From: an uncultured Pseudohongiella sp.
GTDB lineage: Bacteria; Pseudomonadota; Gammaproteobacteria; Pseudomonadales; Pseudohongiellaceae
Assembly (NCBI GenBank): GCA_951812965.1
Contig: OX638341.1
Span: 2,834,438-2,898,437 of the forward strand
DNA: 64,000 nt
Reading direction: 5' to 3'
Below, piece by piece: positions 1,910 through 59,664 of this stretch. Numbering within the stretch: position 1 is the first letter of the stretch; the number at the start of each line of letters is the position of its first letter. A model generated the notes under the pieces. It worked only from the letters and a program-made list of their open reading frames with translations. It made no database searches and was not told where the DNA came from. The position numbers and the translations under genes are program-made.

Positions 1910-1937
1910 GTAGGGGCGAGGCATGCCTCGCCCCTAC
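1910..1937. repeat. Palindromic element copy 1 (collapsed 28-bp form)
   Basis: Perfect 28-bp palindrome: GTAGGGGCGAGGCA followed by its reverse complement. It matches the outer halves of the two-palindrome unit seen elsewhere, joined with the spacer lost. It is followed by GGTCTCATGAACCTGC, a flank partly shared with copy 3. It lies between the end of the ABC permease gene and the start of nuoA. Confidence 0.92.
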
Positions 1938-1976
1938 GGTCTCATGAACCTGCTTAGCGCGGCAACTGCCCGCGGA

Positions 1977-3227
1977 TCATTCGCTGGTTCCGCGGAATTG
2001 CGGTCGCTGTTCGAGACTGGCGTTGGAAACAGGCTCATCGCGAAACAGACGAGGATAGTAGTATTTCCTCAGTGCCGTGTGGAACTCGCGCACTTGCTGT
2101 TCATAGGCCAGGGTCGCCGCCACATCGGTGCCGGCCAGAGCCTGCAAAGCGCGTTCGGCCAGCGCAGGCGGCGATAGCCAGGCAAGCGAACCGGCAAATC
2201 TGTCCCTGCGGATGCGGCCTTCGCGAAAGGCAAGCGACAATGGTTCGACGGTCTGGTCGCCCACTTGTTGAAAGGCGTAATACCACTTCCACTCGAAAGG
2301 CTGACCGACTTCCGTGTAATCCGCCCATTCCGGGTGACGCGCGATGAACGGTTCCATCGTTGCGTCTTTGGGCAGGTCCCAGGCGTCGTTAACCGCCTCT
2401 CTTTGGGTAAACAGAATTTCGCCGCCATCCGGCAATGGCACAATTGACTCGACCGAAACCTTGATTGCCGCCGGAACGATCACGGCGAACGCCAGCCAGG
2501 CGCCGACCAGCGCGGTCAGGTTAACCGGGCTGCTCCAGCCAAAGCGCTCCATCAGGGCGCAAACTGCCCACCAGAACCCGATATGCGAGACTACGACCAG
2601 GCTCGCCAGGGCCAGGGAAGCAGCGTCGGTTCCGGCAAGCAATCCGCCGGCCCAGAGCGGCCCGATCAGGCAAAGCGCCAGGGCGCTAGAGCGCAAGGCC
2701 GCCCGCGCAAGCCAGGGACTTCCCTGGCGTGCCGCGGTGGCGCAGAGCAATTCATAGCGTCCGGCGGCGCTTTCGGCCGAGCGCAAGTCGTGCAACAGGA
2801 GGATCAGCAATAGCGGGGCGAGCAGATTTGCGACGAAAGCAAAGTCAAGGCGCCCAATCAAGGCAAAATCGGGATTTTCCGCGTCGGTTTCGTAAATCTG
2901 CCCTTCCAGGGCCAGAGCGCGGATATTGTGTTTCCAGGGAGAAGTATCCCGCTGCCCCTGGGCGGCGAAGGCAAAATCCGAAGGCGGGGCGTAAGTCAGA
3001 TGGAAGGTGTAATAGGCCACCTCGCCCCAGTCCTGATACCGGCCCATTTCCACTTCCCGTTCCCGATAATCGGCTGCAATCAAATTGTTCAGTTCCGTAC
3101 GTTGCGAGGAAACTTCCCGCAGGCCGAGGAACACCGACACCACAGCGATGAAAACCGCGATTCCCAGCCAAAGCAATGCAGCACTGTCACGGGAGAGAAA
3201 GCGGATTTCCCGGAGCAAGCCGGTCAT
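1977..3227 (-). CDS. ABC-2 type transporter permease, DUF3526-like (second permease)
   Basis: 416-residue inner-membrane protein. A first transmembrane helix lies at residues 17-36, then a ~100-residue soluble loop, then five more hydrophobic stretches from about residue 125 to 255. The C-terminal tail is soluble and includes LAWLSPPALAERALQALAGTD, a motif shared with the neighbouring permease (FGWLSPVVAVSAGSRALSGTD). This layout is typical of DUF3526-type ABC-2 permeases. Its start overlaps the upstream permease stop by 4 bp. With that permease and the ATPase it probably forms one heterodimeric transporter. The substrate and direction of transport are unknown. Confidence 0.85.
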   Translation of the reverse strand: MTGLLREIRFLSRDSAALLWLGIAVFIAVVSVFLGLREVSSQRTELNNLIAADYREREVEMGRYQDWGEVAYYTFHLTYAPPSDFAFAAQGQRDTSPWKHNIRALALEGQIYETDAENPDFALIGRLDFAFVANLLAPLLLILLLHDLRSAESAAGRYELLCATAARQGSPWLARAALRSSALALCLIGPLWAGGLLAGTDAASLALASLVVVSHIGFWWAVCALMERFGWSSPVNLTALVGAWLAFAVIVPAAIKVSVESIVPLPDGGEILFTQREAVNDAWDLPKDATMEPFIARHPEWADYTEVGQPFEWKWYYAFQQVGDQTVEPLSLAFREGRIRRDRFAGSLAWLSPPALAERALQALAGTDVAATLAYEQQVREFHTALRKYYYPRLFRDEPVSNASLEQRPQFRGTSE

Positions 3228-4663
3228 GGCCGGATCCTTCGGGAAACGAAAATGCCTCCCGCCGTCAGCAACAGGAACCAGGCGGACAGCATGGTCAACG
3301 CGGGAGTGGCGCGAGTCAGTCGCTCGGTGGCTGGCGCGGCCTGGAAGTTGAATTCGTCGAGTACATTCCAGTTCTCGGCCGACATCCGAGTACGCCGTTC
3401 GGACGCGGTGTCGTTGCTGCGATTGATGTCGATGATGTAGTCGAGTTGCTCGACATGAACCCGGTTGAGACCTTGCACGAAATCAAAACGCACTGCTTCG
3501 GCTTCGCGCAGGAACCGATGATGAGTCGCAAGATCGGTACCCGAAAGCGCCCGCGAACCCGCGGAAACCGCCACAACCGGCGAAAGCCAGCCAAATGACT
3601 CGGCAAACCGGGCCTGGCGCGCTTCGAGCGCCATTCGCTCTTCGGCATATCTGTTCATTACTTCGGTCAAATCGGCCTCGTTCACTTCCGCGACGACTCC
3701 GCGAAAGTTGACCGGCAAATCTTCCACGCGTTCGACATCGTATTGCGCCAGCAGATTCGCCTGAAGCTGCATGAATTCGGGAGCGCCGGCATAGTGGCCG
3801 TCTCCGACTTCGCGCAAGTCGGCCTGCATCCGCAAGTCGGCCTCCAGCTTCCCTTCGGCCGGCATGACCGAGCTGGCGGTTTCTACCGCCGAGCGCGGGA
3901 CGATAAGTACGGCGCCGAGCCAGAACAACGCGAGAATGCCGAGACCAAGACCTCGAGACCTGACCAGCGCCGAGACGAGCAGGATCAGGCTGCACCAGAC
4001 CAGTGAATACAGCGCGTAGATCCCGATGAGGCCTGCGCTTGCAAGCAGGCTTTCCCCTCGCGCAACGGCAACCGCCGTCATGACGAAAAGCGGCAGTAGC
4101 AGCACCAGCGTGACGCCGGCCAGGGCGATCCACTTGCCCAGGCAAAGCATGACTCCGGTCACGTTCTGGGCCAGCAGCGGCGCGAGCGTATTCTCTTCAC
4201 GCTCGCGGACTATCAGGCCATGTCCGATCGCGATCAGCAGCAGGGGCACGAACAGTTGATAAACCAGGGCGGCGTTCAGAGCTTCAAAGCTGCCAATATT
4301 GGCGCTGGCTCCGGCATCGGCGAACATCGCGGTGTTCTGCCGGTGGCCTTCCAGGAATATCGATTGTCCGGTTACGGCGTCGACACCGGGGTCTACCACG
4401 GACAGGGGCGGAGGAACTCGAAAAACATAATGCCCGTAGTGCACCATTCGGTGGGGGTGGCGATCGGGCTGGGACAGAAAGGTCTCTTCCGCCAGCGCCT
4501 GCTGTTCAGTGCGTTGCTGATGCTCGGCGCTCATCCTGAGCGCGATCAGAGTACTTGTTGCAGTAAGCAACAGGGCGAACACCAGTAATGCGCTCAAGGC
4601 CAGCCGCGATCTGAGCCAGAGTCTCCACTCTTCTCGTGCGATCGAAAAAACACTGTTCATCAT
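3224..4663 (-). CDS. ABC-2 type transporter permease, DUF3526-like (first permease)
   Basis: 479-residue inner-membrane protein, paralogous in layout to the permease that follows it. The N-terminal helix is at about residues 21-44, then a large soluble loop (to ~120), five or six transmembrane segments between ~130 and 260, a second soluble region, and a final helix near residues 452-472 ending in an arginine-rich tail. The motif FGWLSPVVAVSAGSRALSGTD is near residues 355-375. It overlaps the ATPase gene by 4 bp upstream and the second permease by 4 bp downstream, so the three are almost certainly co-translated. Confidence 0.85.
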   Translation of the reverse strand: MMNSVFSIAREEWRLWLRSRLALSALLVFALLLTATSTLIALRMSAEHQQRTEQQALAEETFLSQPDRHPHRMVHYGHYVFRVPPPLSVVDPGVDAVTGQSIFLEGHRQNTAMFADAGASANIGSFEALNAALVYQLFVPLLLIAIGHGLIVREREENTLAPLLAQNVTGVMLCLGKWIALAGVTLVLLLPLFVMTAVAVARGESLLASAGLIGIYALYSLVWCSLILLVSALVRSRGLGLGILALFWLGAVLIVPRSAVETASSVMPAEGKLEADLRMQADLREVGDGHYAGAPEFMQLQANLLAQYDVERVEDLPVNFRGVVAEVNEADLTEVMNRYAEERMALEARQARFAESFGWLSPVVAVSAGSRALSGTDLATHHRFLREAEAVRFDFVQGLNRVHVEQLDYIIDINRSNDTASERRTRMSAENWNVLDEFNFQAAPATERLTRATPALTMLSAWFLLLTAGGIFVSRRIRP

Positions 4664-5451
4664 GCCGCCGCCCTCCCGGCAAAAGCTTCATGGACTGCCT
4701 CGGTGTCGATGCGGTCAATGCCGGGCGGCCGGTCAAAAGTGCCCACGAGTTCGCCGTTTTGCAGCAGGTCGATGCGGTCGGCTACATGGCAGGCGCCATA
4801 TACGTCATGGGTAACCAGAAGGATGGTTCTTCCGGCGTCGGCAAGATCCCGCACAAGGCGATTGAAATCGTCGATTGCCACCGGGTCTAGGCCCGAAGTC
4901 GGCTCGTCCAGCAACAGGATCGGTGTATCCCGCAGAATGGCGAGGGCAATTGCCACTTTCTGGCGCATTCCCTTGGAATAGGTTTGCATCCGCATGCCGC
5001 GGGCTCCGGATTGCAGCGCGACCCGGTCAAGCACATCGTCGAGCGCGCTCCGGTCCGCGTTTGTCCCGGCAAGCGACAGGAAATAACCCAGATTCTCATA
5101 GGCGTTCAGGTGGCCATACAAGCTTGCCGCCTCGGGCAGATAGGCTATAGTCCGCCGGATAGCGCTGAGATTTTCGCCCACGTCCCTGCCCTGTACCTGC
5201 ACACTACCGCCGGCTGGCGTGAGGAATCCGAGAAAGGTCAGCAAAGTCGTTGACTTGCCGGCGCCGTTTCCGCCGAGCAAGGCGTGAACCTCACCCGGAG
5301 AAATACGGAAAGTGACGTCCTTCAGGACTCGCTGGCCAGAACGAATTACGCTGAGCGACTCCGCCGCGAGAACCGGCGCATCGATGGGGGACGATTCTCG
5401 CGTTGCGTTCGCTTGTGGATCGGATGGCGACGTTTTGTCGGAAACAACCAT
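4660..5451 (-). CDS. ABC transporter ATP-binding protein
   Basis: 263-residue nucleotide-binding subunit powering the two downstream permeases. Walker A is GGNGAGKST (about residue 59), the signature is YSKGMRQKVAIA and Walker B is ILLLDEPTSGLD, with the switch histidine in LLVTHD. The frame is open further upstream, but the start at 5451 is preferred: GGAG sits about 10 bases before it, and the longer form would overlap the receptor gene. The start lies 20 bp after the TonB receptor stop. The fold resembles CcmA/NatA-type ATPases of ABC-2 transporters. Confidence 0.9.
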   Translation of the reverse strand: MVVSDKTSPSDPQANATRESSPIDAPVLAAESLSVIRSGQRVLKDVTFRISPGEVHALLGGNGAGKSTTLLTFLGFLTPAGGSVQVQGRDVGENLSAIRRTIAYLPEAASLYGHLNAYENLGYFLSLAGTNADRSALDDVLDRVALQSGARGMRMQTYSKGMRQKVAIALAILRDTPILLLDEPTSGLDPVAIDDFNRLVRDLADAGRTILLVTHDVYGACHVADRIDLLQNGELVGTFDRPPGIDRIDTEAVHEAFAGRAAA

Positions 5452-5471
5452 GAAAGCGCTCCTCAGGCCGG

Positions 5472-7673
5472 TTAGAACGAATAGGACGCCGTGACCCGGT
5501 AGTAAAGCGGTGCGCCCGGCTCGACCCATACGTCTGCATAGGAGTTGGTGTAGTGCACCTCGTCAAATACGTTGTCCACGTCAAGGCGAATTGCCAAACG
5601 CTCGACGGGTTCGATCTGGGCAAAGAACCGTGCAGTGTTGTAGCCGGGCAAGGTGAAGTCAAAGGCAGTGAACCCGAGACGTTCGTCAGTGTATTGAAAG
5701 CCGGCGCCTACCTGCGCAGGCATGCTTCCCACGTCGAAATTCTGGCTGACTTGCACGCTCGCCTGATGTTCCGGCGAGTTGATGAGTGGATCACCGGCTT
5801 CAATGGTCACGCCCCAGTCCGCTTCGAGACTGGTGGTGGTGAACACGGCGTCGATGTACGCGTAGGAAAACCACAGATTGAAGCCGCTCTCGAAGGCGAG
5901 GTCTGCGTCAATTTCAATCCCGCTGCTGGCTGCCTCGCCTGCATCGTGAGAATACCACCCGAGTGCTACGGCCGCCGGCCGATCGTCGTTCACCAGAATG
6001 TTGCTCTGCTCCACATCGAACAGCGAAAACGCAAGCGAGCCGAAGACCCCTTCAGAAAATTGCGCCACATCCAGCTTCAGTCCGATTTCCGCGGACTCGG
6101 TGAGGTTAGGAGCAAATTGGTTGCCTTGATAGTTTGAACCCGGTTGTTGGCGGAAACCTTCGCCGTAGGAAGCGTAGAGGCTGACACCTTCATTGACCGA
6201 GTAAACCGCGCCAAACTGCGGAGAGACGCGAGTATCCGATGACGTGGCCGTAGTTGCCGGATTCGCGCGAAGGTTGGTCAGATCGTGCTCGAAGTCATCC
6301 CAGCGCAGGCCCAGGCGAATCTGCAACCGATCCGTGAGGTCGATCTGGTCCTGTATGTAGATGCCGAATCCATTCAGGACCTCATTCCGGTTTGTGTTCG
6401 GCCCGGGCACGGGCTGCGGATGCTGACCATAGACTGGATTGAACACGTCCAGCAAAAGATATGCCGCCGGATCGAGCGTGTTGATATCCGTGGTTCCCGG
6501 AAACCAACCGGGGCGGTAACGCAGGATAAAATGACTGATATCGAATCGGTCATGGTCGGCGCCCACGAGCAGTCTGTGACGAAGTGAGCCTGTATTGAAA
6601 TCACCCGCAACTTCAGCGCGGGCTACGAAATAGTCCGACTCGAAGTCTCGACGGCGGAAAAATCGTGACAAGGTTCGGCCGTCCAGGGCATATGTCTGGC
6701 GTCCGACGAAGTTTGTTTCGGATGCGTCGCCTTTAAAAGACGTATCCCTGTACCCGAGACCGGCCAACAGACTCCAGTTATCGGAGAAGTTGTGCTGGGC
6801 TTCGAACTGATGACCGAGCACCCTGGTCTCGATGGGCCCGTCACCGGGCTCGCCAACGAAAGTTTCTCGCGGCGTGAAACCAAAGTCTTCCGAATAGGCA
6901 ACACCTCGATCAAAGGGAATCTCCTGCTCTGTGTATTCCAATTCGTAAGTCACACTGGTTGCATCGGACATGTCCCAGGTGATCGATGGATAAAGGCCTA
7001 TACGCGCTGTCTCAACTGTTTCCCTGAAGCTCTCCGCATCTTCGTGGAATCCCACGATGCGCAGCCCGAACTCTTCGTTGGATCCCGCCGTGGACTGGAA
7101 ATCCCCTTCGAAACGCATCTGATTCCAGCGCCCGTAGGTGGCGCGGAAGTCCCCCGCCGTCACAAATTCCGGTCGTTTGGTAACAAGATTGACCGTGCCA
7201 CCAGGCTCGCCACGTCCAAACAGCGCTGAGCGCGGCCCTTTGAGCACTTCCACAGTCTCGATACCGACCAGGTCCCGTGGACCGGCGAACCCGCGACCTG
7301 CGTTAAAGCCGTTAACCAGAAATCCGCTGGGCAAATTGATGTCCCCCGAGAAGCCACGAACCGAAAAACTGTTCCACAAACCGCCAAAGTTGTTTTGGCG
7401 CGCAACGGATGCCGATAAATCCAGCGCGTGATTGAGGTTTATCGCACCGACTTCGCGAAGCAGGTCTTCGGTAATTGTCTGGTCCGCCGATGGCTTTTCG
7501 AGATCGTCGAAATTTCCCCGATACGCGCGGCGATTGCCTGATACGAAAACTTCCTCCACGATGTCCCCGTCGGCGCCTGTCTGTGTTGTTTGCGCTGCAA
7601 CAGGCAGCGCGAATGGAACTGTGAGTGCGGCAGCGCATGCGAGCGCCACCGGCTTTAATGTGTATTTAGTCAT
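5472..7673 (-). CDS. TonB-dependent outer-membrane receptor (siderophore-receptor type)
   Basis: 733-residue outer-membrane gated channel using TonB energy. Start MTKYTLKP (7673) begins a clear signal peptide ending ...PFALPVAAQ. The plug domain covers about residues 40-170, with ITEDLLREVGAINLNHALDL and the plug hallmarks VEVLKGPRSALFGRGEPGG and TVNLVTKRPEF. The rest is a 22-strand-type barrel with many aromatic/Gly-alternating strands, ending in phenylalanine as expected for BAM insertion. The plug resembles ferric-siderophore receptors, but no Fur box was recognised. It is in operon with a small exported protein upstream and an ABC transporter downstream. Confidence 0.93.
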   Translation of the reverse strand: MTKYTLKPVALACAAALTVPFALPVAAQTTQTGADGDIVEEVFVSGNRRAYRGNFDDLEKPSADQTITEDLLREVGAINLNHALDLSASVARQNNFGGLWNSFSVRGFSGDINLPSGFLVNGFNAGRGFAGPRDLVGIETVEVLKGPRSALFGRGEPGGTVNLVTKRPEFVTAGDFRATYGRWNQMRFEGDFQSTAGSNEEFGLRIVGFHEDAESFRETVETARIGLYPSITWDMSDATSVTYELEYTEQEIPFDRGVAYSEDFGFTPRETFVGEPGDGPIETRVLGHQFEAQHNFSDNWSLLAGLGYRDTSFKGDASETNFVGRQTYALDGRTLSRFFRRRDFESDYFVARAEVAGDFNTGSLRHRLLVGADHDRFDISHFILRYRPGWFPGTTDINTLDPAAYLLLDVFNPVYGQHPQPVPGPNTNRNEVLNGFGIYIQDQIDLTDRLQIRLGLRWDDFEHDLTNLRANPATTATSSDTRVSPQFGAVYSVNEGVSLYASYGEGFRQQPGSNYQGNQFAPNLTESAEIGLKLDVAQFSEGVFGSLAFSLFDVEQSNILVNDDRPAAVALGWYSHDAGEAASSGIEIDADLAFESGFNLWFSYAYIDAVFTTTSLEADWGVTIEAGDPLINSPEHQASVQVSQNFDVGSMPAQVGAGFQYTDERLGFTAFDFTLPGYNTARFFAQIEPVERLAIRLDVDNVFDEVHYTNSYADVWVEPGAPLYYRVTASYSF

Positions 7674-7769
7674 TTGTCTCGATCCAAAAACGTTTGAAAT
7701 ACCGCAAAGACAACAACGCAGCGCGCAAACGCGCAGACGCTCTTGGCGGAGCCAAGCAATCAAGGAGTT

Positions 7770-8084: not shown

Positions 8085-8128
8085 GAATCAGATTCCGATT
8101 CAACACATAGCGCGCCCGCCTTCAGCCT

Positions 8129-8156
8129 GTAGGGGCGAGGCATGCCTCGCCACTAC
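8129..8156. repeat. Palindromic element copy 2 (collapsed form)
   Basis: 28-bp palindrome identical to copy 1 except for one base in the right arm (CCACTAC instead of CCCCTAC). It lies between the apbE stop and the start of the small exported protein gene. Confidence 0.9.
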
Positions 8157-8176
8157 ATGAATCCGAAGGTGGCGTC

Positions 8177-9226: not shown

Positions 9227-9245
9227 AAGCAGGCTCCCGTGGCGT

Positions 9246-10908: not shown

Positions 10909-12063
10909 TCACGCCGCGGCGGCTGTGGATTTTCTGATTTCTTCCAGACTGGACACATGAACGGTTTCGCTCAGTCGATAGGATAGCTCGCCGGGACAGA
11001 CGATTGTAATTCTGCTCAAGCCAAGTTCTTCCCGCGCCGCCCGCATCGATGGCGTCACTTTCGGCGCGGAAGAATACTTGAATTCAAACGCTTGCATCGT
11101 CTGCCCCCGAGCGACAAGCAGATCGATTTCCGCTTGTGAATGTTTCGCCCAGAAGAAACTCTCTTCCGGGGCGGCATTCAGGATTCGGATCACTTCTTCT
11201 AGGGCAAATCCTTCCCAGGAAGCGCCCAGAGAAGGATGCTGCCCGAGCGCTTCGGAATCTTCGACTCCAAGGAAATAATGCAGCAATCCACTGTCCCGAA
11301 AATACAGTTTGGGAGATTTCACCTGTCTCTTGCCGATATTGGCGAACCAGGGCTGCAGCGAGCGAATCATGAAGGCGCCCGCAAGAATATCGACGTAGCG
11401 GCGCACGGTAGGCTGTGAAACGTCCAGCGAGCGCGCCAGGTCCGACAGGTTCAGCACCTTGCCGTGAAGATGCGACAACATCGTCCAGAGTCTGCGCATT
11501 CGCGCCGGATTGAAGTCGATTCCAAGCGCGGGAATGTCGCGCTCCAGCAAATTCGTGACATAGTGCCTGCGCCAGTTCATGCTATCCAAGTCGTTCGCGG
11601 CCAGATAGGAAAGCGGAAACCCGCCCCGCAGCCACAGGCGCTTCGAATCTTTGACCTCCGCGCTAGTGAAAGGCGTCAATTCGAGATAAGCGATTCGCCC
11701 GGCCAGCGATTCCGAAGTCTGGCGTATCAGTTCGCGGGACGCACTGCCCAGAATCAGGAATTTCTGCTTGAGCGGGCGGCGGTCGAGTAACACGCGAAGG
11801 AGCGGGAAAAGTTCGGGGACGCGCTGAATCTCATCGATAACGACGAGTCCTTCGAGTTCTTCCAGCGCAAGTTTCGGCTCGGACAGCCGATTCAGGTCAT
11901 CCGGGTCTTCGAGGTCGAAATAATGTACTTGCCCTTTGACAGAGTCGGCGATATACGTGCGCGCCAGCGTAGTCTTGCCGCACTGCCTCGGTCCGAGCAG
12001 GCCGACCGCCGGGTGGGTGCGAAACAATTCTTCGATTTGCGCCAGATAGGCTGAACGCTGCAT
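10909..12063 (-). CDS. AAA+ ATPase with DUF4143 C-terminal domain
   Basis: 384-residue cytoplasmic ATPase of the DUF4143 family. Walker A is LLGPRQCGKTTLART (residues 22-36), Walker B is GLVVIDEIQRVPEL, and a sensor-like LILGSASRELIRQ follows. A winged-helix segment is visible near residues 205-230 (LSDLARSLDVSQPTVRRYVD). The C-terminal DUF4143 region carries a PD-(D/E)XK-like pattern: FALEEVIR, then AEIDLLVARG and AFEFKYSS. These proteins are common, scattered and of unknown function. It stands alone between gap and mfd. A perfect-arm palindrome lies 12 bp before its start, and AGGA precedes the ATG. Confidence 0.88.
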   Translation of the reverse strand: MQRSAYLAQIEELFRTHPAVGLLGPRQCGKTTLARTYIADSVKGQVHYFDLEDPDDLNRLSEPKLALEELEGLVVIDEIQRVPELFPLLRVLLDRRPLKQKFLILGSASRELIRQTSESLAGRIAYLELTPFTSAEVKDSKRLWLRGGFPLSYLAANDLDSMNWRRHYVTNLLERDIPALGIDFNPARMRRLWTMLSHLHGKVLNLSDLARSLDVSQPTVRRYVDILAGAFMIRSLQPWFANIGKRQVKSPKLYFRDSGLLHYFLGVEDSEALGQHPSLGASWEGFALEEVIRILNAAPEESFFWAKHSQAEIDLLVARGQTMQAFEFKYSSAPKVTPSMRAAREELGLSRITIVCPGELSYRLSETVHVSSLEEIRKSTAAAA

Positions 12064-12074
12064 TTTTTCCTGGG

Positions 12075-12099
12075 ATATTCAAATTCAGACTTTGAATAT
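12075..12099. promoter_or_regulatory. Palindromic operator-like site upstream of the DUF4143 ATPase
   Basis: ATATTCAAA and TTTGAATAT form perfect 9-bp arms around a 7-bp spacer. The site is AT-rich inside a GC-rich genome and lies 12-36 bp upstream of the ATPase start. A role as binding site for a regulator, possibly the ATPase's own winged helix, is inferred. Confidence 0.55.
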
Positions 12100-12145
12100 T
12101 CCCAGTGATTTGCGCTGTAGTCAACCAAATGTTTGGGTTCAACTT

Positions 12146-12222
12146 GTAGGGGCGAGGCATGCCTCGCCCGTCAGTTGCACGGTTTCGGGGCCATACGCGG
12201 GCGAGGCATGCCTCGCCCCTAC
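12146..12222. repeat. Palindromic element copy 3 (full unit)
   Basis: Two 24-bp palindromic arms, inverted relative to each other, at 12146-12169 and 12199-12222, each containing GGGCGAGGCATGCC, separated by a 29-bp spacer. The right flank continues GGTCTCA and, further on, TTGAACCTGCACATG. It lies between the divergent DUF4143 ATPase gene and mfd. Confidence 0.95.
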
Positions 12223-15777: not shown

Positions 15778-16702
15778 GGCCACAAGAAATCCTCGCATCC
15801 CGACCCACTCCCCCCGCGGGGGAGTCAAATCCGCGCAGCGAATTTGGTGGGGGCGAGTCGTTCGGGCCGCAAGAAGCTGCATTGCCCTGCTCGCCGCTAC
15901 ATTCGTCTGGGGCCATGCCGGCCTCGCCGAAGCACAGGGTTTCCAACGCTGGTTTCAGGTCGAGATGACGATTTTCAGCAATGAATCCGGCGCCGACCGC
16001 GAACGGGAATTCTGGAACGCGGAAAATTCGGACTTGTCTTATCCGCCGGATATGATTCGCCTGGGGCGATTGACCGATCTGCTGTTTCTCGATTGGTCGG
16101 CCTCTGAACCCGATTCCGAGCCGCTTGCGCCGGAACTCGAACGGCTGCGCGGCACGGGCCCCTTTCCCGCCCGCGAAGCAAGCGGTTTCCGTTTTCCCGA
16201 CTTGCAGCGAGATCCGTTCCTGGAGTTGCCGGCCGCCTACAGCGATTTCCGCCAGACCAACCAGGCCATCGAGCAGGCGGGTCAATATCGCGTACTGTAT
16301 GACGCTGTCTGGCGCCAACCGGTAGGAGACGAAGGTACGGAGACGCCGGTTCTTGTTGTCGGCGGCGGCCGTTACGGCGACTTTACGGAATTGCAGGGAT
16401 CGGTAACGCTGTATTTCAACGCAAACCGGGATCGGGTAATTTTCAACGCCGACCTGTGGCTTGTGGAATTCGGCGGCGCGACGAATGGGGGCGAATGGTT
16501 GCTGCCGCCTTTGCCGGAAGAATTTCGGGAAAACGCCGGCATTTCGGCGGCTGCGGCGATCAGCCGCGTTTTTACCATGCGCCAGCAACGCGAATTGCGC
16601 AGCGGCGAATTTCACTATCTCGACCACCCCGCATTGGGAATCGTCGTGCAGATCACTCCTTACGATCGCCCACCGCCGGAACCAACTGAAAATCAGCCCT
16701 GA
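15761..16702 (+). CDS. csiV: CsiV-like exported protein with repeat-derived N-terminus
   Basis: 313-residue exported protein resembling CsiV (peptidoglycan-binding, DUF-level family), placed after mfd as in Pseudomonas. The mature part starts near GFQRWFQVEMTIFSN, with RNADL-like FNADLWLVEFGG and the C-terminal FHYLDHPALGIVVQITPY typical of the family. The only plausible start I find is TTG at 15761, with GGAG eight bases upstream, overlapping mfd by 17 bp. This gives an unusual ~38-residue basic leader before the hydrophobic core IALLAATFVWGHAGLAEA. A 50-bp double-hairpin repeat lies inside that leader and encodes part of it. Confidence 0.72.
   Translation: MRKQPEATRNPRIPTHSPRGGVKSAQRIWWGRVVRAARSCIALLAATFVWGHAGLAEAQGFQRWFQVEMTIFSNESGADREREFWNAENSDLSYPPDMIRLGRLTDLLFLDWSASEPDSEPLAPELERLRGTGPFPAREASGFRFPDLQRDPFLELPAAYSDFRQTNQAIEQAGQYRVLYDAVWRQPVGDEGTETPVLVVGGGRYGDFTELQGSVTLYFNANRDRVIFNADLWLVEFGGATNGGEWLLPPLPEEFRENAGISAAAAISRVFTMRQQRELRSGEFHYLDHPALGIVVQITPYDRPPPEPTENQP
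15804..15853 (+). repeat. 50-bp double-hairpin repeat, copy 1 (intragenic)
   Basis: Contains CTCCCCCCGCGGGGGAG, then a second hairpin AAATCCGC-GCA-GCGAATTT (one mismatch). The ends CCCAC and GTGGG are complementary, so a three-way junction could form. It is 45/50 identical to the copy at 50533-50582 and lies within the inferred 5' coding region of the csiV-like gene. Confidence 0.85.
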
Positions 16703-16973
16703 CGCATGGTAATTGTCTTCGATCCGTCGCCGTCTGGGGGCCAGTCTGCAGCGGACGCTGTGAATACATCCCTGTACGCTTCGAGCTCGGCGTCCTGCCT
16801 CGCACGCCCGCTGCAGACTGGCCCCCAGACGGCGACTCGCGTTGTGCGGGAACCATTTACTTCGTAGGCTTCGGGCTCGACATCTCTGACTCACACGCCC
16901 GCCGCAAATCCCCATCCCGCCAGCGACTCACATCCGGGGAGCGACTAGTTTGTGACCGGTGGGAGGTCTGTTG
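16703..16973. other. Convergent intergenic region (csiV-like / mtnP)
   Basis: 271 bp between two converging genes. It holds a long inverted repeat (16726-16836). I see no credible gene or T-tailed terminator in it. The remainder (16837-16973) shows no recognisable feature. Confidence 0.7.
16726..16836. repeat. Long inverted repeat, 29-bp perfect arms
   Basis: Left arm 16726-16754 starts GTCGCCGTCTGGGGGCCAGT; the right arm 16808-16836 is its exact reverse complement; the loop is 53 bp. A few further bases pair after one mismatch at the inner end. It is unrelated in sequence to the other two repeat families here, and no other copy was noticed in the window. Confidence 0.9.
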
Positions 16974-27531: not shown

Positions 27532-27611
27532 GTAGGGGCGAGGCATGCGTCGCCCGCCGGGGTCCGAAATCGAATCAGGCAAAATTCGGGCGAGGCATGC
27601 CTCGCCCCTAC
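27532..27611. repeat. Palindromic element copy 4 (full unit)
   Basis: Arms at 27532-27555 (GAGGCATGCGTCGCCC, one base off the palindrome) and 27588-27611, with a 32-bp spacer whose reverse complement resembles the spacers of copies 3, 6 and 9, so it is inverted relative to them. It sits between the converging acnB and pepN genes. Confidence 0.93.
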
Positions 27612-34902: not shown

Positions 34903-34926
34903 GGGCGACGCGTGCGTCGCCGTTAC
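34903..34926. repeat. Palindromic element copy 5 (half unit)
   Basis: GGGCGACGCGTGCGTCGCC plus GTTAC corresponds to one 24-bp arm of the full unit, with the A in the centre changed to G and compensating C/G changes that keep the palindrome. It directly precedes the AGGAG ribosome-binding site of the DUF1428 gene. Confidence 0.75.
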
Positions 34927-34939: not shown

Positions 34940-35305
34940 ATGGCATATGTAGACGGTTTCGTTCTTGCGGTTCCGGCCGCCAAACGGGAGGAATTCATTG
35001 AACATGCCGAATTCGTCGACGGACTGATCAAGGAATGCGGCGCCGATCGCATCGTCGAATGCTGGGCCGATGACGTACCCGACGGCGAGGTCACCGACTT
35101 CGCCAGGGCGGTAAAGAAGAAAGACGACGAGATCGTGGTTTTTGCCTGGATAGAATGGCCCGACAAGGCTACGCGCGACGAAGGCATGAAGAAAATGCAG
35201 GAACACGCCGCGGGCGACGAGCGCTGGGATCCGGAAAAATACCCGCCGCCCTTCGACGGCAAGCGGATGGTCTGGGGCGGATTTACACCAGTGGTCGATA
35301 TCTGA
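34940..35305 (+). CDS. DUF1428 family protein (YbaA-like)
   Basis: 121-residue cytoplasmic protein of the DUF1428/YbaA family with a dimeric alpha/beta-barrel-like fold. It shows AYVDGFVLAVPAAKREEFI, then ADRIVECWADDVPDGEVTDF, VFAWIEWPDKATRDEGMKKM and the C-terminal PPFDGKRMVWGGFTPVVDI. No biochemical function is established. AGGAG 7 bases before the ATG fixes the start. It diverges from the metalloprotease gene, with a repeat half-unit in its leader. Confidence 0.9.
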   Translation: MAYVDGFVLAVPAAKREEFIEHAEFVDGLIKECGADRIVECWADDVPDGEVTDFARAVKKKDDEIVVFAWIEWPDKATRDEGMKKMQEHAAGDERWDPEKYPPPFDGKRMVWGGFTPVVDI

Positions 35306-43158: not shown

Positions 43159-43237
43159 GTAGGGGCGAGGCATGCCTCGCCCGTGGGTGTTGCGCGATAT
43201 TCGGGCCATTCGCGGGCGAGGCATGCCTCGCCCCTAC
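43159..43237. repeat. Palindromic element copy 6 (full unit)
   Basis: Arms 43159-43182 and 43214-43237 around a 31-bp spacer; both arms contain GGGCGAGGCATGCC perfectly. The left flank TGCAGGTTCAGCAT matches, as a reverse complement, the right-hand flank of copy 3. It ends one base before the uvrB stop codon. Confidence 0.95.
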
Positions 43238-45341: not shown

Positions 45342-45420
45342 GTAGGGGCGAGGCATGCCTCGCCCGCGAATCCCCCGAAAATCCTGCCACACCCGCGGGC
45401 GACGCATGCGTCGCCCCTAC
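45342..45420. repeat. Palindromic element copy 7 (full unit)
   Basis: Arms 45342-45365 (GAGGCATGCCTC core) and 45397-45420 (GACGCATGCGTC core), spacer 31 bp. The second arm carries paired C/G changes that preserve its own palindrome. The spacer and the left flank (GGGACC) indicate inverted orientation relative to copies 3, 6 and 9. Confidence 0.94.
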
Positions 45421-45469: not shown

Positions 45470-45570
45470 GTAGGGGCGAGGCTTGCCTCGTTCCAGCCGC
45501 CGAGCACAGCTCGGCGTCGCTCGGGCTGCGCACGAAGCTTTCGCTTCGTAACCGCTTGCCTCGTTCCTAC
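45470..45570. repeat. Palindromic element copy 8 (degenerate, expanded)
   Basis: Begins GTAGGGGCGAGGCTTGCCTC and ends GCTTGCCTCGTTCCTAC, but the middle (45495-45553) is longer than in other copies and contains two unrelated palindromes, GCCGAGCACAGCTCGGC and ACGAAGCTTTCGCTTCGT. Confidence 0.7.
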
Positions 45571-50506: not shown

Positions 50507-50532
50507 ATTGGCTGGATTCGGCTACAGGTTTA

Positions 50533-50582
50533 CCCCCACCAAAACCGCTGCGCGGTTTTGACTCCCCCGGAGGGGGAGTGGG
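50533..50582 (-). repeat. 50-bp double-hairpin repeat, copy 2 (intergenic)
   Basis: Read on the minus strand it starts CCCACTCCCCCTCCGGGGGA and continues with a perfect hairpin AAAACCGC-GCA-GCGGTTTT before GGTGGGGG. Compared with copy 1, the second hairpin carries changes that restore pairing. It fills the gap between lapA and pyrF. Confidence 0.88.
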
Positions 50583-52916: not shown

Positions 52917-53073
52917 GAAATGTACCAACCCTTGACGCAGGCATTGGCCGAACGGCGCTGCTCTTGTCAAAGTCTTTGTCAATCCGCACGCCAGTGTGCG
53001 GGCCAGTTTTTGCCTTGTTCCACCGAATTCGCTGCTGGCCGTAATTCCGGAAGAACGCCTGTTTACCCTACCT

Positions 53074-53742: not shown

Positions 53743-55994
53743 GGATTCTCGTCCGCTTCGGAGATATCGAGTCCGGCTTCGCGCGCCAGTGCGGCGAAGC
53801 CCGGAAACGAGGTCGCGACATTTGCGCAATTGCGAATCGTCAGGGCTTCCCGGCAGCGCAGGCCCGCCACGGCGAAAGCCATGGCGATGCGATGATCGCC
53901 GCGGCTGTCGATCGTCCCGCCGGCGAGGTCGCCGCCGACCACGCGGATTCCGTCGGGCCAGGTCTCGTTTTCGATGCCCAGCACGCTGAGACCTTGCGCC
54001 ATGGCGTCGATGCGGTCGCTTTCCTTGACCCGCAACTCCGCCGCTCCGCGGACGCGGGTTTCACCCCGGGCGCAGGCTGCCGCTATGAGTAGCGCGGGAA
54101 ATTCGTCGATGGCCAGCGCGACCTGCTGTTCGCCTATGTCCACTCCCCGCAGCGGGCGATAGCGCACTTCGAGATCGGCCACGGGTTCGCCGCCGGATTC
54201 CCGCTCATTGCGCAAGCGGATGTCGGCGCCCATCTGCCGCAGGATATCGATTACGCCGGCGCGGGTCGGATTGACGCCGACGTGTTCCAGCACAAGCTTT
54301 GCACCGGGCGATATCGCCGCGGCAACCAGGAAGAACGCCGCCGAGGAGATATCGCCGGGGACTTCGATCGAAGCAGCCGACAGCGTCTGTCCGCCCCGGA
54401 TGCTGATCCTGCCGCGTTCGGGGCCGGATTCCAGTTGCACGCCGAATCCGCGCAACATGCGTTCGGTGTGATCGCGGCACGGGCCCGGCTCGCGCACGCT
54501 CGTGACGCCTTCGGCGTACAGCCCGGCAAGCAGGAGACAAGATTTGACCTGAGCGCTCGCCACGGGCATGTCGTATTCGATGCCTTGCAACCCGCCGGGA
54601 TCGATTGCGGAAGACTGCCCCGCGGCGCCGGCGGCATTGATTCGCAGTGGCGGACGCCCCTCCGGGCCGGAATCGATTTGCGCGCCCATTGCCGACAGGG
54701 GCTTGACGATGCGATTCATCGGGCGGCCCGTAAGAGATTCGTCGCCTTGCAGTTCGCTGGCGAAGTCCTGGCCGGCGAGCACCCCGGCAAGCAAGCGCAT
54801 GCCGGTACCCGAATTACCCATGTATAGGGGTTTGCGCGGCGCCTGCAAACCCTTCGCGCCGGCGCCGTAAATTCTGAGCCGGCCGTTTTCCGGCCCGGCA
54901 ATGGTAACGCCGAGTTCGCGGAAAGCCGCCAGCGTGTTGAGGGCGTCTTCGCCTTCCAGGAAACCGCTCACTGTGGTTACGCCTTCAGCCAGCGAACCGA
55001 GCATCACGGCGCGATGGGAAATCGATTTGTCGCCGGGTACACGGATGCGTCCCTTGACCGTTCCGCCCGGCTGCACCAGGAAGCTTTTTTGAAACCCGGG
55101 GCCGCGCTCCGATTGCGACTCCTGTCCGCTGCCGTAGGTCAGATCGAAGTTTTCCCGCGCCACTCGCGATCTGTACAGTCGATCGCGCAGCGCCTTGCGG
55201 TCATTCCCGGCCAGCGCCCGGCGAATTTGCGTCAGATCCTCCGTCATGGCGTCCAGCGCTTCCGTGGCGGCCGCGGAATTCGCACAGAAAATATCGCTCC
55301 ACAAGTCCGGATCGCTAGCAGCCAGCCGGGTGAAATCGGCGAAACCGCTGGCGGCATAGCGATTCACGTCGGGGCCGGTCTCCCGCCGCGCCAGCAGATC
55401 CGTAGCGGCGAAAGCGAGCAGATGCGGCAGGTGACTGGTCAAGGCAAGGATGCGGTCGTGGCGGGCGGCGCTCATGGCGAGCACGTTGGCGCCGAGCGTG
55501 CGCCACATGTCGTGGACCGCGGCAATCGCCGCGGGATCGGTATCGTCGAGCGGAGTGAGCACGACGTTGCGATCTAGGAACAGATCCGCACTCGAAGCAG
55601 AAAATCCGCTTCGCTCCGAACCTGCCAGCGGATGTCCGGGAACGACTCTCGAACGGAAGCCGGGCGAAAGCTGCGCCAGCGTCCCGGCCATATGACCTTT
55701 CGCGCTGGCCACGTCGGTGACCACGACTTTCGATGATGTACAATTTTCAAGTTCCCGCAGAATTCCCGGCGCCACCAGCGGCGGTGCGGCAATGACTACG
55801 ATATCCGCATTGCAACAAACTTCACTCAGACCACCGGCGTGATCGATCACCTGCTCTTCAAGCGCCGAAAGTACGGCTTTCTTGTCAAGGTCCTCGGCGC
55901 CGATCCACAGACCGGCGTCGGCGCGTTTCAGCGCCCTGGCCAGGGATCCCCCGATCAAGCCCAGCCCGACTATGGCGATTCTGCTCGGTTTCAT
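53739..55994 (-). CDS. tyrA-aroA: Fused prephenate dehydrogenase / EPSP synthase
   Basis: 751-residue bifunctional protein. Residues 1 to ~295 are an NAD(P)-dependent prephenate dehydrogenase of tyrosine synthesis (IVGLGLIGGSLARALK, then GHPLAGSERSGF, VVLTPLDDTDP and LTSHLPHLLAFA). Residues ~308-751 are AroA, making 5-enolpyruvylshikimate-3-phosphate (RVPGDKSISHRAVMLGSLAEG, LYMGNSGTGMRLLAG, DGDESLTGRPM-like LQGDESLTGRPMNR, RVKESDRIDAMAQGL and DHRIAMAFAVAG). The same fusion is known in Pseudomonas. It follows pheA by 35 bp and is translationally coupled to cmk. Confidence 0.95.
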   Translation of the reverse strand: MKPSRIAIVGLGLIGGSLARALKRADAGLWIGAEDLDKKAVLSALEEQVIDHAGGLSEVCCNADIVVIAAPPLVAPGILRELENCTSSKVVVTDVASAKGHMAGTLAQLSPGFRSRVVPGHPLAGSERSGFSASSADLFLDRNVVLTPLDDTDPAAIAAVHDMWRTLGANVLAMSAARHDRILALTSHLPHLLAFAATDLLARRETGPDVNRYAASGFADFTRLAASDPDLWSDIFCANSAAATEALDAMTEDLTQIRRALAGNDRKALRDRLYRSRVARENFDLTYGSGQESQSERGPGFQKSFLVQPGGTVKGRIRVPGDKSISHRAVMLGSLAEGVTTVSGFLEGEDALNTLAAFRELGVTIAGPENGRLRIYGAGAKGLQAPRKPLYMGNSGTGMRLLAGVLAGQDFASELQGDESLTGRPMNRIVKPLSAMGAQIDSGPEGRPPLRINAAGAAGQSSAIDPGGLQGIEYDMPVASAQVKSCLLLAGLYAEGVTSVREPGPCRDHTERMLRGFGVQLESGPERGRISIRGGQTLSAASIEVPGDISSAAFFLVAAAISPGAKLVLEHVGVNPTRAGVIDILRQMGADIRLRNERESGGEPVADLEVRYRPLRGVDIGEQQVALAIDEFPALLIAAACARGETRVRGAAELRVKESDRIDAMAQGLSVLGIENETWPDGIRVVGGDLAGGTIDSRGDHRIAMAFAVAGLRCREALTIRNCANVATSFPGFAALAREAGLDISEADENP

Positions 55995-56029
55995 GCCAGC
56001 GAATTCATAATGAGCGGCTTTGTGCGGCC

Positions 56030-56845
56030 TCAGGCGGCCGGATACGAGCCGAGTATTTTAACCTCGTCCGTGCAGGCGCTTAAGCGGCGAAACAATTCCT
56101 CGACTTTCTCGTCCTGGCAATGGCCCTCGAAATCCATGAAAAAGATGTATTCCCATTTTTCGCCTCGTAACGGCCGGGATTCGAGTCGGCTCAGACTGAT
56201 CTGCAGATTCTCGAAAGGCTCAAGCGCCCGAAACAGCGCACCGGGACGATTTTGTGCGTAGACCAGGATGCTGGTCTTGTCGCGCCCGCTGGGAACGGTC
56301 TGCTCCCGGCCGAGGACGGCAAACCGCGTGCGATTGCCGAGTTGGTCCTGAATGGATTCGGCCAGCGCCCGCAATCCGTAGATCTTGCGCGCCATGTTGC
56401 CTGCGATCGCCGCGACGGCGGGGTTGTCCGCCGCCAATTGCGCCGCTTGACCGTTACTCGCGCATTCGCGCAACGGCAGATCGGGCATATTTGTCCGCAG
56501 CCATTTGCGGCATTGGGCCAGCGATTGCGGATGTGAGGCGATACTGGCGACCGCGGCTTTGTCGACGCCTTCACGGGCAAGCAGATGGTGTTCGATGGGC
56601 ACTATCTGCTCGCCGATGATCTGCACCGGACTTTCGATCAGGCAATCCTGGGTATTGTTTACCGCGCCTTCCGTGGAGTTCTCGATGGGCGTTACGCCGT
56701 ACACCGCCCCGCCCGACTCCACCGCCGCGAACACTTCATCGATGGCGCGGCATTCGAGCAGGTCGCATTCGCCGCCGAACTGCCGCAGCGCCGCTTCCTG
56801 GGAAAATGTTCCCGGCGGTCCCAGGTAGGCGATTTTGCCGGTCAA
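56030..56845 (-). CDS. pheA: Prephenate dehydratase without chorismate mutase domain
   Basis: 271-residue enzyme converting prephenate to phenylpyruvate in phenylalanine synthesis. The PDT domain covers residues 1-185 ([54 protein letters not shown] and the catalytic [10 protein letters not shown]). The regulatory ACT domain follows ([43 protein letters not shown]). The ~90-residue N-terminal chorismate mutase usual in gammaproteobacterial P-proteins is absent: the start is TTG at 56845 embedded in the gyrA stop, leaving no room for it. serC and hisC, usual neighbours, are also absent. Confidence 0.93.
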
Positions 56846-59451
56846 TGGGTCTGATCCGGCTGACGCGGCTCGGGCGGTTCCTCGCCGCTGTCCATGACGT
56901 CTTCCGATTCGTCGATCTGTTCGAGCCCCACCAGTTTTTCCCCTTCCTTGAGGTTTATGAGCGTCACGCCCTGGGTCGATCTGCCCATGGTGCGAACTTC
57001 TACGGCCCTTGTGCGCACCAGCGTGCCCTTGTCGGAGATGAGCATGATCTCGTTGTTCTCGGTAACCTGCACAGCGCCGACCACGGGCCCGTTGCGCTCG
57101 CTCGTGAGCATACCGATCACGCCATTGATGCCACGGCCCTTCGCCTCAAACTGGCTGGTTTCCGTACGCTTGCCGTAACCGTTCTCGCTCACGGTCAGAA
57201 TCTGCTTGTCGTCGTCCGGGATGATCAGAGAAATCATTTCCGCGCCTGCCTGCATGCGAATTCCGCGCACGCCTCTGGCCTGGCGACCCATGACTCTCAC
57301 CCTGGATTCATTGAATCGCACGGTCTTGCCGCTGCTGCTCACGAGCATGATGTCCCGCTCGCCGTCGGTAATCGCGGTGCCGATCAGGGTGTCGTCATCG
57401 CGCAGCTCGATTGCGCGCAATCCTACGCTGCGCGGCCTGGCGAACTCGGACAAGGCGGTCTTTTTCACGATCCCCCTGCGGGTCGCCATGAAGACGAAAT
57501 GGTTTTCGTCAAATTCCTTGACCGACAGCATCGCCGTGATGCGTTCGCCTTCGTCCAGGGACGGAATGATGTTGATGATGGGCTTGCCGCGGGAAGTGCG
57601 TGACGCGGGCGGAATCTGGTAAACCTTGAGCTGGTACACCTTGCCCGCGTTGCTGAAACACAGCAGCGTATCGTGGGTATTGGCAATCAGCATCCTGGTG
57701 ACGAAGTCTTCGCCCTTGACGGTGGCCGCCGCCTTGCCCATGCCGCCCCGGCGCTGGGCGCTATAGTCCGCGACAGGCTGCGTCTTGGTATAGCCGAGAT
57801 GGGAGATGGTGACCACGCGATCTTCGGGCGTGATCAGGTCTTCCATGGTCAGATCGAGCTGGCTGCCGACGATTTCCGTGCGGCGCGCGTCGCCGTAGTC
57901 CTGGCGAACCTGTTCGATTTCTTCGCGCACGACTTCGAGCAGGCGTTCGGGAGTGTCCAGGATTTCAATGTATTCCGAGATCTTGCCGAGCAGTTCCTTG
58001 TAGTCCTTCACCAGCTTCTCGTGTTCGAGACCGGTGAGCCGGTGCAGGCGCAGGTCGAGAATTGCCTGGGCCTGATCCGGTGATAGGCGGTATACCGGAT
58101 TGTTTGCACTCTCCTGCAATCCGTACATAGGATCGAGGCCGTCGGGACGGCAGGCGTCGGCGTCGGCGCCGACTCCGCTGAGCATTTCCACGACCTCGGC
58201 GGAAACCCAGGTCTGCGCGAGCAGTTTTTCCTTCGCCTCGGCAGGCGTCGGCGAAGTCTTGATGAGTTCGATGACCGCGTCGATGTTGCCGAGCGCCACG
58301 GCCAGGCCTTCCAGCAGATGGCCGCGCTCCCGCGCCTTGCGCAGCAGATAGATGGTGCGGCGGGAGACGACCTCGCGCCGGTGGCGCAAGAAAGCCTCAA
58401 GCGTGCCTTTCAGATTTAGCAGCTTGGGCTGGCCGTCGACGAGGGCGACCATGTTGATGCCGAATCCCGACTGCAACTGGGTCTGGGAGTACAGATTGTT
58501 CAGTACGACTTCGCCCATTTCGTTCTTGCGCAATTCGATGACGATGCGCAGGCCGTCCTTGTCGGACTCGTCCCGCAATTCGGTAATGCCTTCGAGTTTC
58601 TTTTCCTTGACGAGTTCGGCGATGCGTTCGATCAGCCTTGCCTTGTTGACCTGGTAGGGGATTTCGGTGACGACAATGGTTTCCTTGCCGCTGTTGTCGT
58701 CCCGCAGTATTTCGGCGCGGGCGCGCACGTAGATAACGCCGCGGCCGGTGCGATAGGCCTGCACGATTCCGGCCCTGCCGTTGATTAGGCCCGCGGTGGG
58801 AAAATCCGGCCCGCTGATGTGTTCCATCAGACCGTCGACGTCGAGTTCCGGGTTTTCCAGCAGTGCGATAGCGCCATTGACGACTTCTTCCAGATTGTGC
58901 GGCGGAATATTGGTCGCCATGCCCACGGCGATGCCGGACGAGCCATTGACCAGCAGATTGGGAATGCGCGTCGGCAGAACATCGGGAACTTGTTCGGTAT
59001 CGTCGTAGTTGGGCGAGAAATCGACGGTTTCCTTGTCGAGATCGGCGAGCAGTTCCTGGGTGATGCGCGCCATGCGGATCTCGGTGTAGCGCATGGCCGC
59101 AGCCAGATCGCCGTCGACCGAACCGAAATTGCCCTGGCCGTCGATCAGCGGATAACGCAGGGAAAAATCCTGGGCCATACGGACTACGGTGTCATAAACC
59201 GCGCTATCTCCGTGGGGGTGGTACTTGCCGATCACGTCGCCGACGACGCGGGCGGACTTCTTGTAAGGTTTATCGTGGTCGTTGGACAATACGCGCATCG
59301 CGAACAGGACGCGCCGATGCACCGGTTTCAGGCCGTCGCGCGCGTCGGGCAGCGCACGGCCCACGATCACGCTCATGGCGTATGCGAGATAGGACTCTCG
59401 CATTTCGGTTTCTAGCGCAACAGGAGAAACCTGCGGATCGGATTCCGGCAT
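56842..59451 (-). CDS. gyrA: DNA gyrase subunit A
   Basis: 869-residue subunit that cuts and rejoins DNA during negative supercoiling. It has the catalytic tyrosine region [14 protein letters not shown] and the quinolone-resistance-determining stretch [20 protein letters not shown], which carries the wild-type Ser and Asp residues. The C-terminal DNA-wrapping beta-pinwheel repeats include the GyrA-box [11 protein letters not shown] (variant of QRRGGKG) and end in an acidic tail. A TATAAA at 59484-59479 may be its -10. The stop overlaps the pheA start. Confidence 0.98.
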
Positions 59452-59585
59452 TGGATGGAGGTATCTTGAACTGCTTTATTTATAGACTAATCGGCGGATT
59501 TCGCGGCCGCTGAACGCGTCCGGGAAAGGCGCGCATTCTAGCATGCAACAGCCGCCGACTTCCAGCGGCTTTACAGGTTCCGCAT

Positions 59586-59664
59586 GTAGGGGCGAGGCAT
59601 GCCTTGCCCTTGGGTTTTGCGCGGAATCTGAGCCATCCGCGGGCGAGGCATGCCTAGCCCCTAC
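59586..59664. repeat. Palindromic element copy 9 (full unit, decayed arms)
   Basis: Arms 59586-59609 (GAGGCATGCCTTG, one change) and 59641-59664 (GCATGCCTAG, one change), spacer 31 bp resembling that of copy 6. The left flank is CAGGTTCCGCAT. It sits between the divergent gyrA and mtaD genes. Confidence 0.93.

What the first reader, a model, noticed from the sequence alone, without database searches (positions are those of the whole stretch)
1910..59664. Nine copies of a palindromic intergenic element (core GTAGGGGCGAGGCATGCC)
Full units of 77-80 bp (12146, 27532, 43159, 45342, 59586) consist of two 24-bp palindromic arms in inverted orientation around a 29-32-bp spacer. Two collapsed 28-bp units (1910, 8129), one half unit (34903) and one expanded unit (45470) complete the set. 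All nine are intergenic in 64 kb, a high density. Arms show paired changes that keep the palindrome (GAGGC/GCCTC to GACGC/GCGTC), suggesting selection on the hairpin or on recognition by an enzyme. The layout resembles REP/BIME or MITE families mobilised in trans. No mobilising gene lies in the window.
Basis: seen in the sequence. Interest (0 to 1): 0.72.

Follow-up and report, generated by a model that had tools for sequence, protein, structure and literature searches.

The report
REP hairpin repeats with their transposase
The nine small hairpin repeats in this stretch belong to a family of several hundred copies scattered through one bacterium's genome and nearly absent from its close relatives, and a matching enzyme gene of a known kind, found elsewhere in the genome and surrounded by the same repeats, is the likely agent that copies them.

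Summary
In detail: nine intergenic units, sixteen GTAG-footed arms. They are GTAG-tagged REP elements, mostly head-to-head dimers (REPINs/BIMEs). The arm is GTAG plus a perfect 20-nt palindrome in two forms. The genome holds hundreds of copies (461 exact 13-mers, control 0); 60 other genomes of its genus hold 0 to 27 by a looser pattern. A mobiliser exists: one REP-associated tyrosine transposase (RAYT/TnpAREP) gene 2 Mb away, flanked by the same REPs and carrying one in frame between its HUH and tyrosine motifs. Its modelled fold best matches 4ER8, a REP transposase bound to a REP hairpin. No relative of it was found in the 60 congeners. In sister genome G022 seven of eight compared units are absent. 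All this fits TnpAREP subclass 2.4 of Quentin et al. 2018, including double-foot REPs (the 28-bp units) and REPs inside the transposase gene: a new member of a known kind. Extras: 58 of 75 related RAYT genes carry a REP in the same linker, usually like the flanking ones where these are seen; and two related RAYT genes differ by one REPIN exactly at a CT dinucleotide, the cleavage site reported for the E. coli enzyme. No activity was measured.

The parts
1910..1937 (.). Double-foot REP (GTAG-palindrome-CTAC, 28 bp)
   Evidence: folds, z -6.4; at a rearrangement border relative to G022
8129..8156 (.). Double-foot REP, one mismatch on each strand
   Evidence: absent at the aligned place in G022
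12146..12222 (.). REPIN: head-to-head REP dimer, 29-nt spacer
   Evidence: absent with the neighbouring gene in G022
27532..27611 (.). REPIN, 32-nt spacer, 29 bp after the aconitase B stop
   Evidence: G022 has a REP-like unit without the GTAG foot at the same 3' end, right flank not anchored
34903..34926 (-). Single degenerate REP (foot GTAA, GACGC form), just upstream of the likely ATG at 34940
   Evidence: not compared with G022
43159..43237 (.). REPIN, 31-nt spacer, next to the 3' end of uvrB
   Evidence: in G022 the two flanks lie about 7.5 kb apart with another repeat beside the left one, and no pattern match lies on that contig
45342..45420 (.). REPIN with one GAGGC and one GACGC arm
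   Evidence: absent in G022, other repeat there
45470..45570 (.). Expanded unit: degenerate REP arms around extra hairpins
   Evidence: absent in G022
59586..59664 (.). REPIN, 31-nt spacer, upstream of gyrA
   Evidence: a different repeat lies at this place in G022

Best explanation
The units are REPs and REPINs: non-autonomous miniature mobile elements copied in trans by the one RAYT (TnpAREP) gene found in this genome at G000:C1:793526-794173 (L051:1066-1716). Proposed working: when the DNA is single-stranded, each GTAG-footed 20-nt palindrome folds. The HUH/tyrosine enzyme recognises foot and hairpin, cleaves next to it at or near a CT dinucleotide, and the excised or copied dimer is joined into another single-stranded site; tolerated sites are mostly intergenic. 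Double-foot units are dimers that lost their centre. Shown here by sequence: family, copy number, structure, the RAYT gene with the same REPs around and inside it, near-restriction to this species, sites lacking the unit. Inferred from the family: cleavage, strand transfer and the copying route; no activity was measured.
For: Copy number: 461 exact 13-mers, control 0; 578 strand matches to a looser 24-mer against 27, 23, 9 and 2 in four congeners and 0 in 56. Anatomy: 45 clusters in 464 kb: 19 head-to-head dimers with gaps of 29-34 nt, 15 singles, 4 double-foot, 3 tail-to-tail, 4 groups. Spacers are shared between distant units: 108 of 231 pairs exceed the best shuffled pair. RAYT: Pfam Y1_Tnp 27.5 bits, cut-off 23; closest NCBIfam model is REP_Tyr_transpos, E 6e-16, though below its cut-off; both HUH histidines and the tyrosine invariant in 35 aligned sequences, own included; best PDB match 4ER8 by sequence profile and by fold. 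Same REPs upstream, downstream and inside the gene. RAYT found in 1 of 61 genus genomes, the one with hundreds of REPs. CT is the commonest dinucleotide before GTAG, 16 of 72. L054 and L055 differ by a REPIN exactly at CT.
Against: The RAYT scored below the NCBIfam cut-off (58.6 against 80) and was missed at E 0.001, probably because its linker is enlarged. G021, G022 and G443 hold 9-27 REPs but no RAYT was found, so these copies arrived or persisted without one, or the gene was lost or missed. 17 of 24 congeners searched carry some other Y1 transposase, which shows that such a gene alone does not bring these REPs, but also that other Y1 enzymes occur in the genus. 56 of 72 arms are not preceded by CT. 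The REPIN spacers beside the RAYT differ from the common spacer type, so those copies are not the obvious source. Intergenic DNA has diverged too far from G022 for exact junctions in the window. At 27532 G022 also has a REP-like unit. The stretch with the pair of REPs inside the RAYT gene folds only modestly better than shuffles (z -2.2, 7 of 200 as good).
Confidence: 0.93

Rival explanations
1. An IS-derived MITE whose terminal inverted repeats are served by an ordinary DDE transposase.
For: Units of 77-80 bp with inverted ends look like short MITEs.
Against: Each end is itself a full GTAG-tagged palindrome; singles, double-foot units and tail-to-tail pairs exist; the RAYT carries the same arms. 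No search for other transposases was made.
Confidence: 0.03
2. Host-serving hairpins (terminators, mRNA stabilisers, gyrase or nucleoid sites) kept at each place by selection, with no mobility.
For: 41 of 45 clusters intergenic by crude gene calls; 21 of 37 distances to neighbouring 3' ends are 63 nt or less; arms far more alike than spacers (96% against 70% in related pairs).
Against: Nearly absent from 60 congeners; shared spacers show copying of whole dimers; no clear excess between convergent genes: 6 of 41, against 14% of intergenic length. A secondary host role remains possible.
Confidence: 0.04
3. Relic population: the RAYT is inactive, its gene damaged by the REP inside it, and the copies now only decay.
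For: The linker is enlarged by REP-derived sequence and modelled with low confidence; related units are on average 70% alike in their spacers.
Against: The frame is intact, the core is modelled at high confidence, 58 of 75 relatives also carry a REP in this linker, and 56 of 89 arms are exact.
Confidence: 0.2

Closest known systems
TnpAREP/RAYT subclass 2.4 and its REPs (Quentin et al. 2018, PMC6006769; abstract passages, other passages and section 13 seen)
   Different: Arm sequence and host are its own; the protein was not placed on their tree. The single intact internal REP has a degenerate inverted partner.
GTAG-tagged REP superfamily (Di Nocera et al. 2013, PMC3733652; abstract and sections 5, 15, 16 read)
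   Same: GTAG foot, stem, head-to-head dimers, mostly intergenic, RAYT genes flanked by the repeats.
   Different: Not compared with their 24 consensus families, which are in a figure that is not held.
REPINs (PMC3116915; search listing and start of abstract only; authors Bertels and Rainey recalled)
   Same: Inverted REP doublets spread as a unit (recalled).
   Different: Different RAYT group and host (recalled).
E. coli TnpAREP REPtron (structure 4ER8; Corneloup et al. 2021, PMC8266576; abstract, introduction, section 29 read)
   Same: Fold, HUH/Y, GTAG, reported cleavage at CT.
   Different: E. coli REPs have a bulged stem; these are perfect palindromes.

Membership tests
GTAG-tagged REP / BIME / REPIN | GTAG at the foot of a palindrome of about 20-40 nt | tested here: met
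   56 of 89 sampled arms are exact GTAG + 20-nt palindrome in one of two forms
GTAG-tagged REP / BIME / REPIN | High copy number, spread through the genome, mostly intergenic | tested here: met
GTAG-tagged REP / BIME / REPIN | Inverted dimers with short regular spacing, and tandem groups | tested here: met
   19 head-to-head dimers, gaps 29-34 nt; 4 groups of 3-8 arms
RAYT / TnpAREP | Y1 HUH transposase with catalytic tyrosine | tested here: met
   below the NCBIfam cut-off
RAYT / TnpAREP | Gene flanked by inverted cognate REPs | tested here: met
RAYT / TnpAREP | Presence correlates with abundance of cognate REPs | tested here: met
   the gene was found in 1 of 61 genus genomes, the one with hundreds of REPs; four without it hold 2-27, 56 hold none by that pattern
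TnpAREP subclass 2.4 | In-frame REP within the gene between HuH and Y; double-foot REPs | tested here: met
   description
TnpAREP subclass 2.4 | Placement in the published tree or subclass profile | not tested
   profiles not held
RAYT / TnpAREP | Cleavage and strand transfer of cognate single-stranded REP | not testable with these tools
   needs purified protein
IS-derived MITE | Parent IS with the same terminal repeats | not tested
   only Y1 transposases were searched

The most novel reading that the evidence does not exclude
The REP inside the RAYT gene is a kept working part and not a harmless passenger: a cognate hairpin carried in the enzyme's own reading frame, serving as operator or mRNA brake on its expression, or tying enzyme and substrate together as both change. 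In line with this, 58 of 75 related genes have a REP in the same linker against 6 of 75 elsewhere in the core; internal and flanking REPs match in 18 of the 22 genes where both were seen, against 2.4 expected; and among four related cyanobacterial genes one has changes on both sides of the internal stem, altering the protein, with its flanking REP showing the same changes. Against it: L054 has an intact gene without a linker REP, and 17 of 75 genes showed none.
Probability: 0.25. Interest if true: 0.62.

Novelty: new member of a known kind. Interest (0 to 1): 0.36.

Why it matters
It gives a clear natural case of a REP population of several hundred copies in one species, with one RAYT gene found, among many congeners in which the gene was not found and the REPs are few or absent; that is a good setting for asking how such populations start. 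The L054/L055 pair shows the boundaries of one REPIN at a CT dinucleotide, and the regular presence of a cognate REP inside the transposase gene makes a testable question about self-regulation or enzyme-substrate linkage.

Tried and rejected
Y1 transposase search at E 0.001 found nothing and at first suggested that the genome had no mobiliser; a looser search found it. A second HUH protein (L052) was set aside: the one REP found on that 3-kb locus lies about 1.1 kb from its frame. Rfam: the six matches at gathering score are tRNAs. The reversed-linker control (17 of 75) is unsuitable, since a reversed palindrome stays a palindrome; the linker/rest-of-core contrast was used instead. In that call the linker ran to the tyrosine motif in the few genes whose WQ motif was not matched, and the palindrome definition allows one mismatch in long stems. 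The correlation of REP distance with RAYT distance is weak: r 0.15, 20 of 2000 permutations as high. No clear excess of units between convergent genes. Exact empty-site junctions in the window failed because intergenic DNA is too diverged from G022.
Full report
WHAT IS THERE. The window holds nine intergenic units built from one 24-nt arm: GTAG followed by the perfect 20-nt palindrome GGGCGAGGCATGCCTCGCCC. The core 18-mer gives 18 strand matches at up to 3 mismatches; 100 shuffles give 0.10 on average. A 24-nt scan at up to 4 mismatches finds 16 GTAG-footed arms: five head-to-head dimers, two double-foot units (two arms each), one single arm at 34903 and one expanded unit at 45470-45570. Seven of the nine were folded as single-stranded DNA; they fold 5 to 11 standard deviations better than shuffles.

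GENOME-WIDE. The window is part of a single 3,425,201-base contig. The 13-mer GTAGGGGCGAGGC occurs 461 times, its reversed control never. The 24-mer at up to 3 mismatches gives 899 strand matches, control 0; one unit can match on both strands there. In a sample of 464 kb (the window plus 20 stretches of 20 kb, one chosen for the RAYT) there are 89 arms at up to 4 mismatches, reversed control 0; 56 are exact, 43 of the GAGGC form and 13 of the GACGC form. They form 45 clusters: 19 head-to-head dimers (gaps 29-34 nt), 15 singles, 4 double-foot, 3 tail-to-tail, 4 groups. By crude gene calls that cover 82% of the sequence 41 are intergenic and 4 lie inside frames. Two of these labels are wrong: 34903 is probably intergenic, and the tail-to-tail pair at L099 13821-13918 lies inside the RAYT gene, which the caller missed; the total stays at 41. 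Twenty-one of 37 distances to a neighbouring 3' end are 63 nt or less. Between convergent genes lie 6 of 41, no clear excess over 14% of intergenic length.

WHAT IS COPIED. Spacers of distant units are related: 108 of 231 pairs exceed the best shuffled pair. Leaving out the three pairs within the RAYT locus, 169 of 228 pairs have spacer identity of 0.6 or more; in these the spacers are 70% and the arms 96% identical on average. So whole dimers were copied, and arms are held far more tightly than spacers. At the paired variable position 62 of 89 arms are G/C, 18 C/G, 9 neither; 9 of 22 head-to-head pairs carry one arm of each form. The palindrome that is kept is therefore the local REP hairpin. 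The two forms look like two subfamilies copied many times.

THE MOBILISER. A Y1 transposase search at E 0.001 missed it; at E 10 it appears at G000:C1:793961-794128. The gene, L051:1066-1716, encodes 216 residues: Pfam Y1_Tnp 27.5 bits with cut-off 23, NCBIfam REP_Tyr_transpos E 6e-16 but 58.6 bits against a cut-off of 80. REPs of both subfamilies lie upstream (L051 641, 722, 781, 862, 922) and downstream (1753, 1834), and one perfect REP lies in frame inside the gene at 1435-1458, after the HUH motif and before the tyrosine motif, with a degenerate inverted partner near 1361-1388. That inner stretch as a whole folds only modestly better than shuffles (z -2.2). In 35 aligned sequences, own included, H84, H86 and Y197 are invariant; that Y197 is the catalytic tyrosine follows from the family and was not tested. 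The AlphaFold model has mean pLDDT 80.5, with residues 124-141, where the REP-coded peptide begins, below 50. The best PDB match is 4ER8, a REP transposase bound to a REP hairpin, by profile (E 1.7e-7) and by fold (E 6.7e-6, TM 0.49 by query length).

DISTRIBUTION. Of 61 genomes sampled from the genus, own included, a relative of this RAYT was found only here (E 1e-3), and only five have any match to GTAGGGGNNNNGCATGCNNNNCCC: 578 here, 27 in G021, 23 in G022, 9 in G443, 2 in G018. By the exact 13-mer, in 38 genomes (own, 24 congeners and 13 others of the order), six others have matches: G021 15, G022 13, G008 2, G009, G033 and G036 one each. Other Y1 transposases are common in the genus: 17 of 24 congeners have one at E 1e-3. 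In 398 genomes of the phylum 9 have a relative of this RAYT at E 1e-10, own included.

SITES IN RELATIVES. In 21 of 22 congener loci the gap between uvrB and tRNA-Asn is 163-277 nt shorter than in the window, in one 19 nt shorter; a crude check for GGGCGA/TCGCCC was positive in 2 of the 22, and those two were not looked at further. In G022, the nearest by UvrB (91%), units are absent at 1910 (a rearrangement border), 8129, 12146 (with a gene), 43159 (flanks 7.5 kb apart), 45342, 45470 and 59586; other repeats occupy 43159, 45342 and 59586. None of the 23 pattern matches of G022 lies in the syntenic stretches read. At 27532 G022 has a REP-like unit without the GTAG foot. 34903 was not compared. 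So seven of eight units are absent. Divergence prevents exact junctions.

A SHARP JUNCTION IN A RELATIVE. Two RAYT genes of one genus (L054 of G141, L055 of G117; 479 of 510 aligned bases identical) differ by one REPIN in the linker. L055 reads ...TTTCTTCT|GTAGGGG...TTGCCCCT|ACGTGC..., L054 reads ...TTTCTTCT|ACGTGC.... CT stands at both boundaries, so the cut can be placed before or after it. Corneloup et al. 2021 report CT as the cleavage dinucleotide of E. coli TnpAREP (introduction read). Whether L054 is an unoccupied site or a precise excision cannot be told from one pair. In this genome CT is the commonest dinucleotide before GTAG, 16 of 72, followed by AT 13 and CC 12.

REPS INSIDE RAYT GENES. 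Of 80 named RAYT loci, 75 have an intact frame by my motif search; 58 of these 75 carry a GTAG-type palindrome between the HUH motif and the WQ motif (or the tyrosine motif where WQ was not matched), 6 of 75 elsewhere in the core. With a stricter definition (perfect stem of 8 or more) 52 of 73 genes, own included, have one; in the 22 that also have a detectable flanking REP, internal and flanking arms agree within 1 of 14 bases in 18, against a mean of 2.4 and maximum of 8 in 1000 shuffled pairings. Cyanobacterial genes L153, L170 and L217 share one internal stem; L176 has changes on both sides of that stem, which alter the protein, and its flanking REP has the same changes. The REP arm of this genome, in one of its two forms, recurs in RAYT loci titled Nitrospinota (L139), Gemmatimonadetes (L140), Dehalococcoidia (L172, flank only) and Tectomicrobia (L192).

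COMPARISON WITH WHAT IS KNOWN. Di Nocera et al. 2013 (abstract and sections 5, 15, 16) define GTAG-tagged REPs in 24 families. Quentin et al. 2018 (passages and section 13; [quoted passage not shown] These features are met here, so the finding is a new member of a known kind. I did not place the protein in their tree. Nunvar et al. 2010 (abstract and two passages) report that RAYTs and flanking REPs apparently coevolve. Literature searches made.

LIMITS. No activity was measured. Gene calls in the sample are crude. Relatives are one genome per species, many incomplete, so absence of a RAYT in G021, G022 or G443 is not certain. Other transposase families of this genome were not surveyed.

Noticed in passing
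window 16726-16836, and L113, L107, L135, L137, L138, L219-L238: A second, genus-wide repeat of about 112 bp with dozens of matches in G022 and G447. Outer ends and centre are conserved, but the inner part of the inverted arms (nt 8-25) is 95% complementary within a copy and only 53% identical between copies. This is from 22 of 27 copies examined: 3 gave no arms, 2 fell below the 20-of-34 arm match that I required, so the 95% is biased upwards. Very variable yet mostly paired arms: unexplained, and perhaps more surprising than the REPs.
   Followed up: partly
window 15804-15853 and 50533-50582; L065 in the uvrB to tRNA-Asn gap: A third repeat, CCCACTCCCCC...GGGGGAGTCAAA, in two inverted copies in the window, with related sequence in G022 where the window has a REPIN.
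   Followed up: no
window 10909-12222: A gene with AAA_14 and DUF4143 domains and the REPIN beside it are both missing in G022, where the flanks adjoin.
   Followed up: partly
G000:C1:305199-305526, 636126-637459, 845629-846222: Tandem REP arrays with mostly regular steps (76, 131 and 106 bp), like BIME expansions.
   Followed up: no
L155, L170, L176, L205, L217 linkers: RAYT linkers also hold short in-frame tandem peptide repeats (for example DDIKGG in L217, GLHSS in L205) beside the REP, so the linker tolerates repeat expansion.
   Followed up: no
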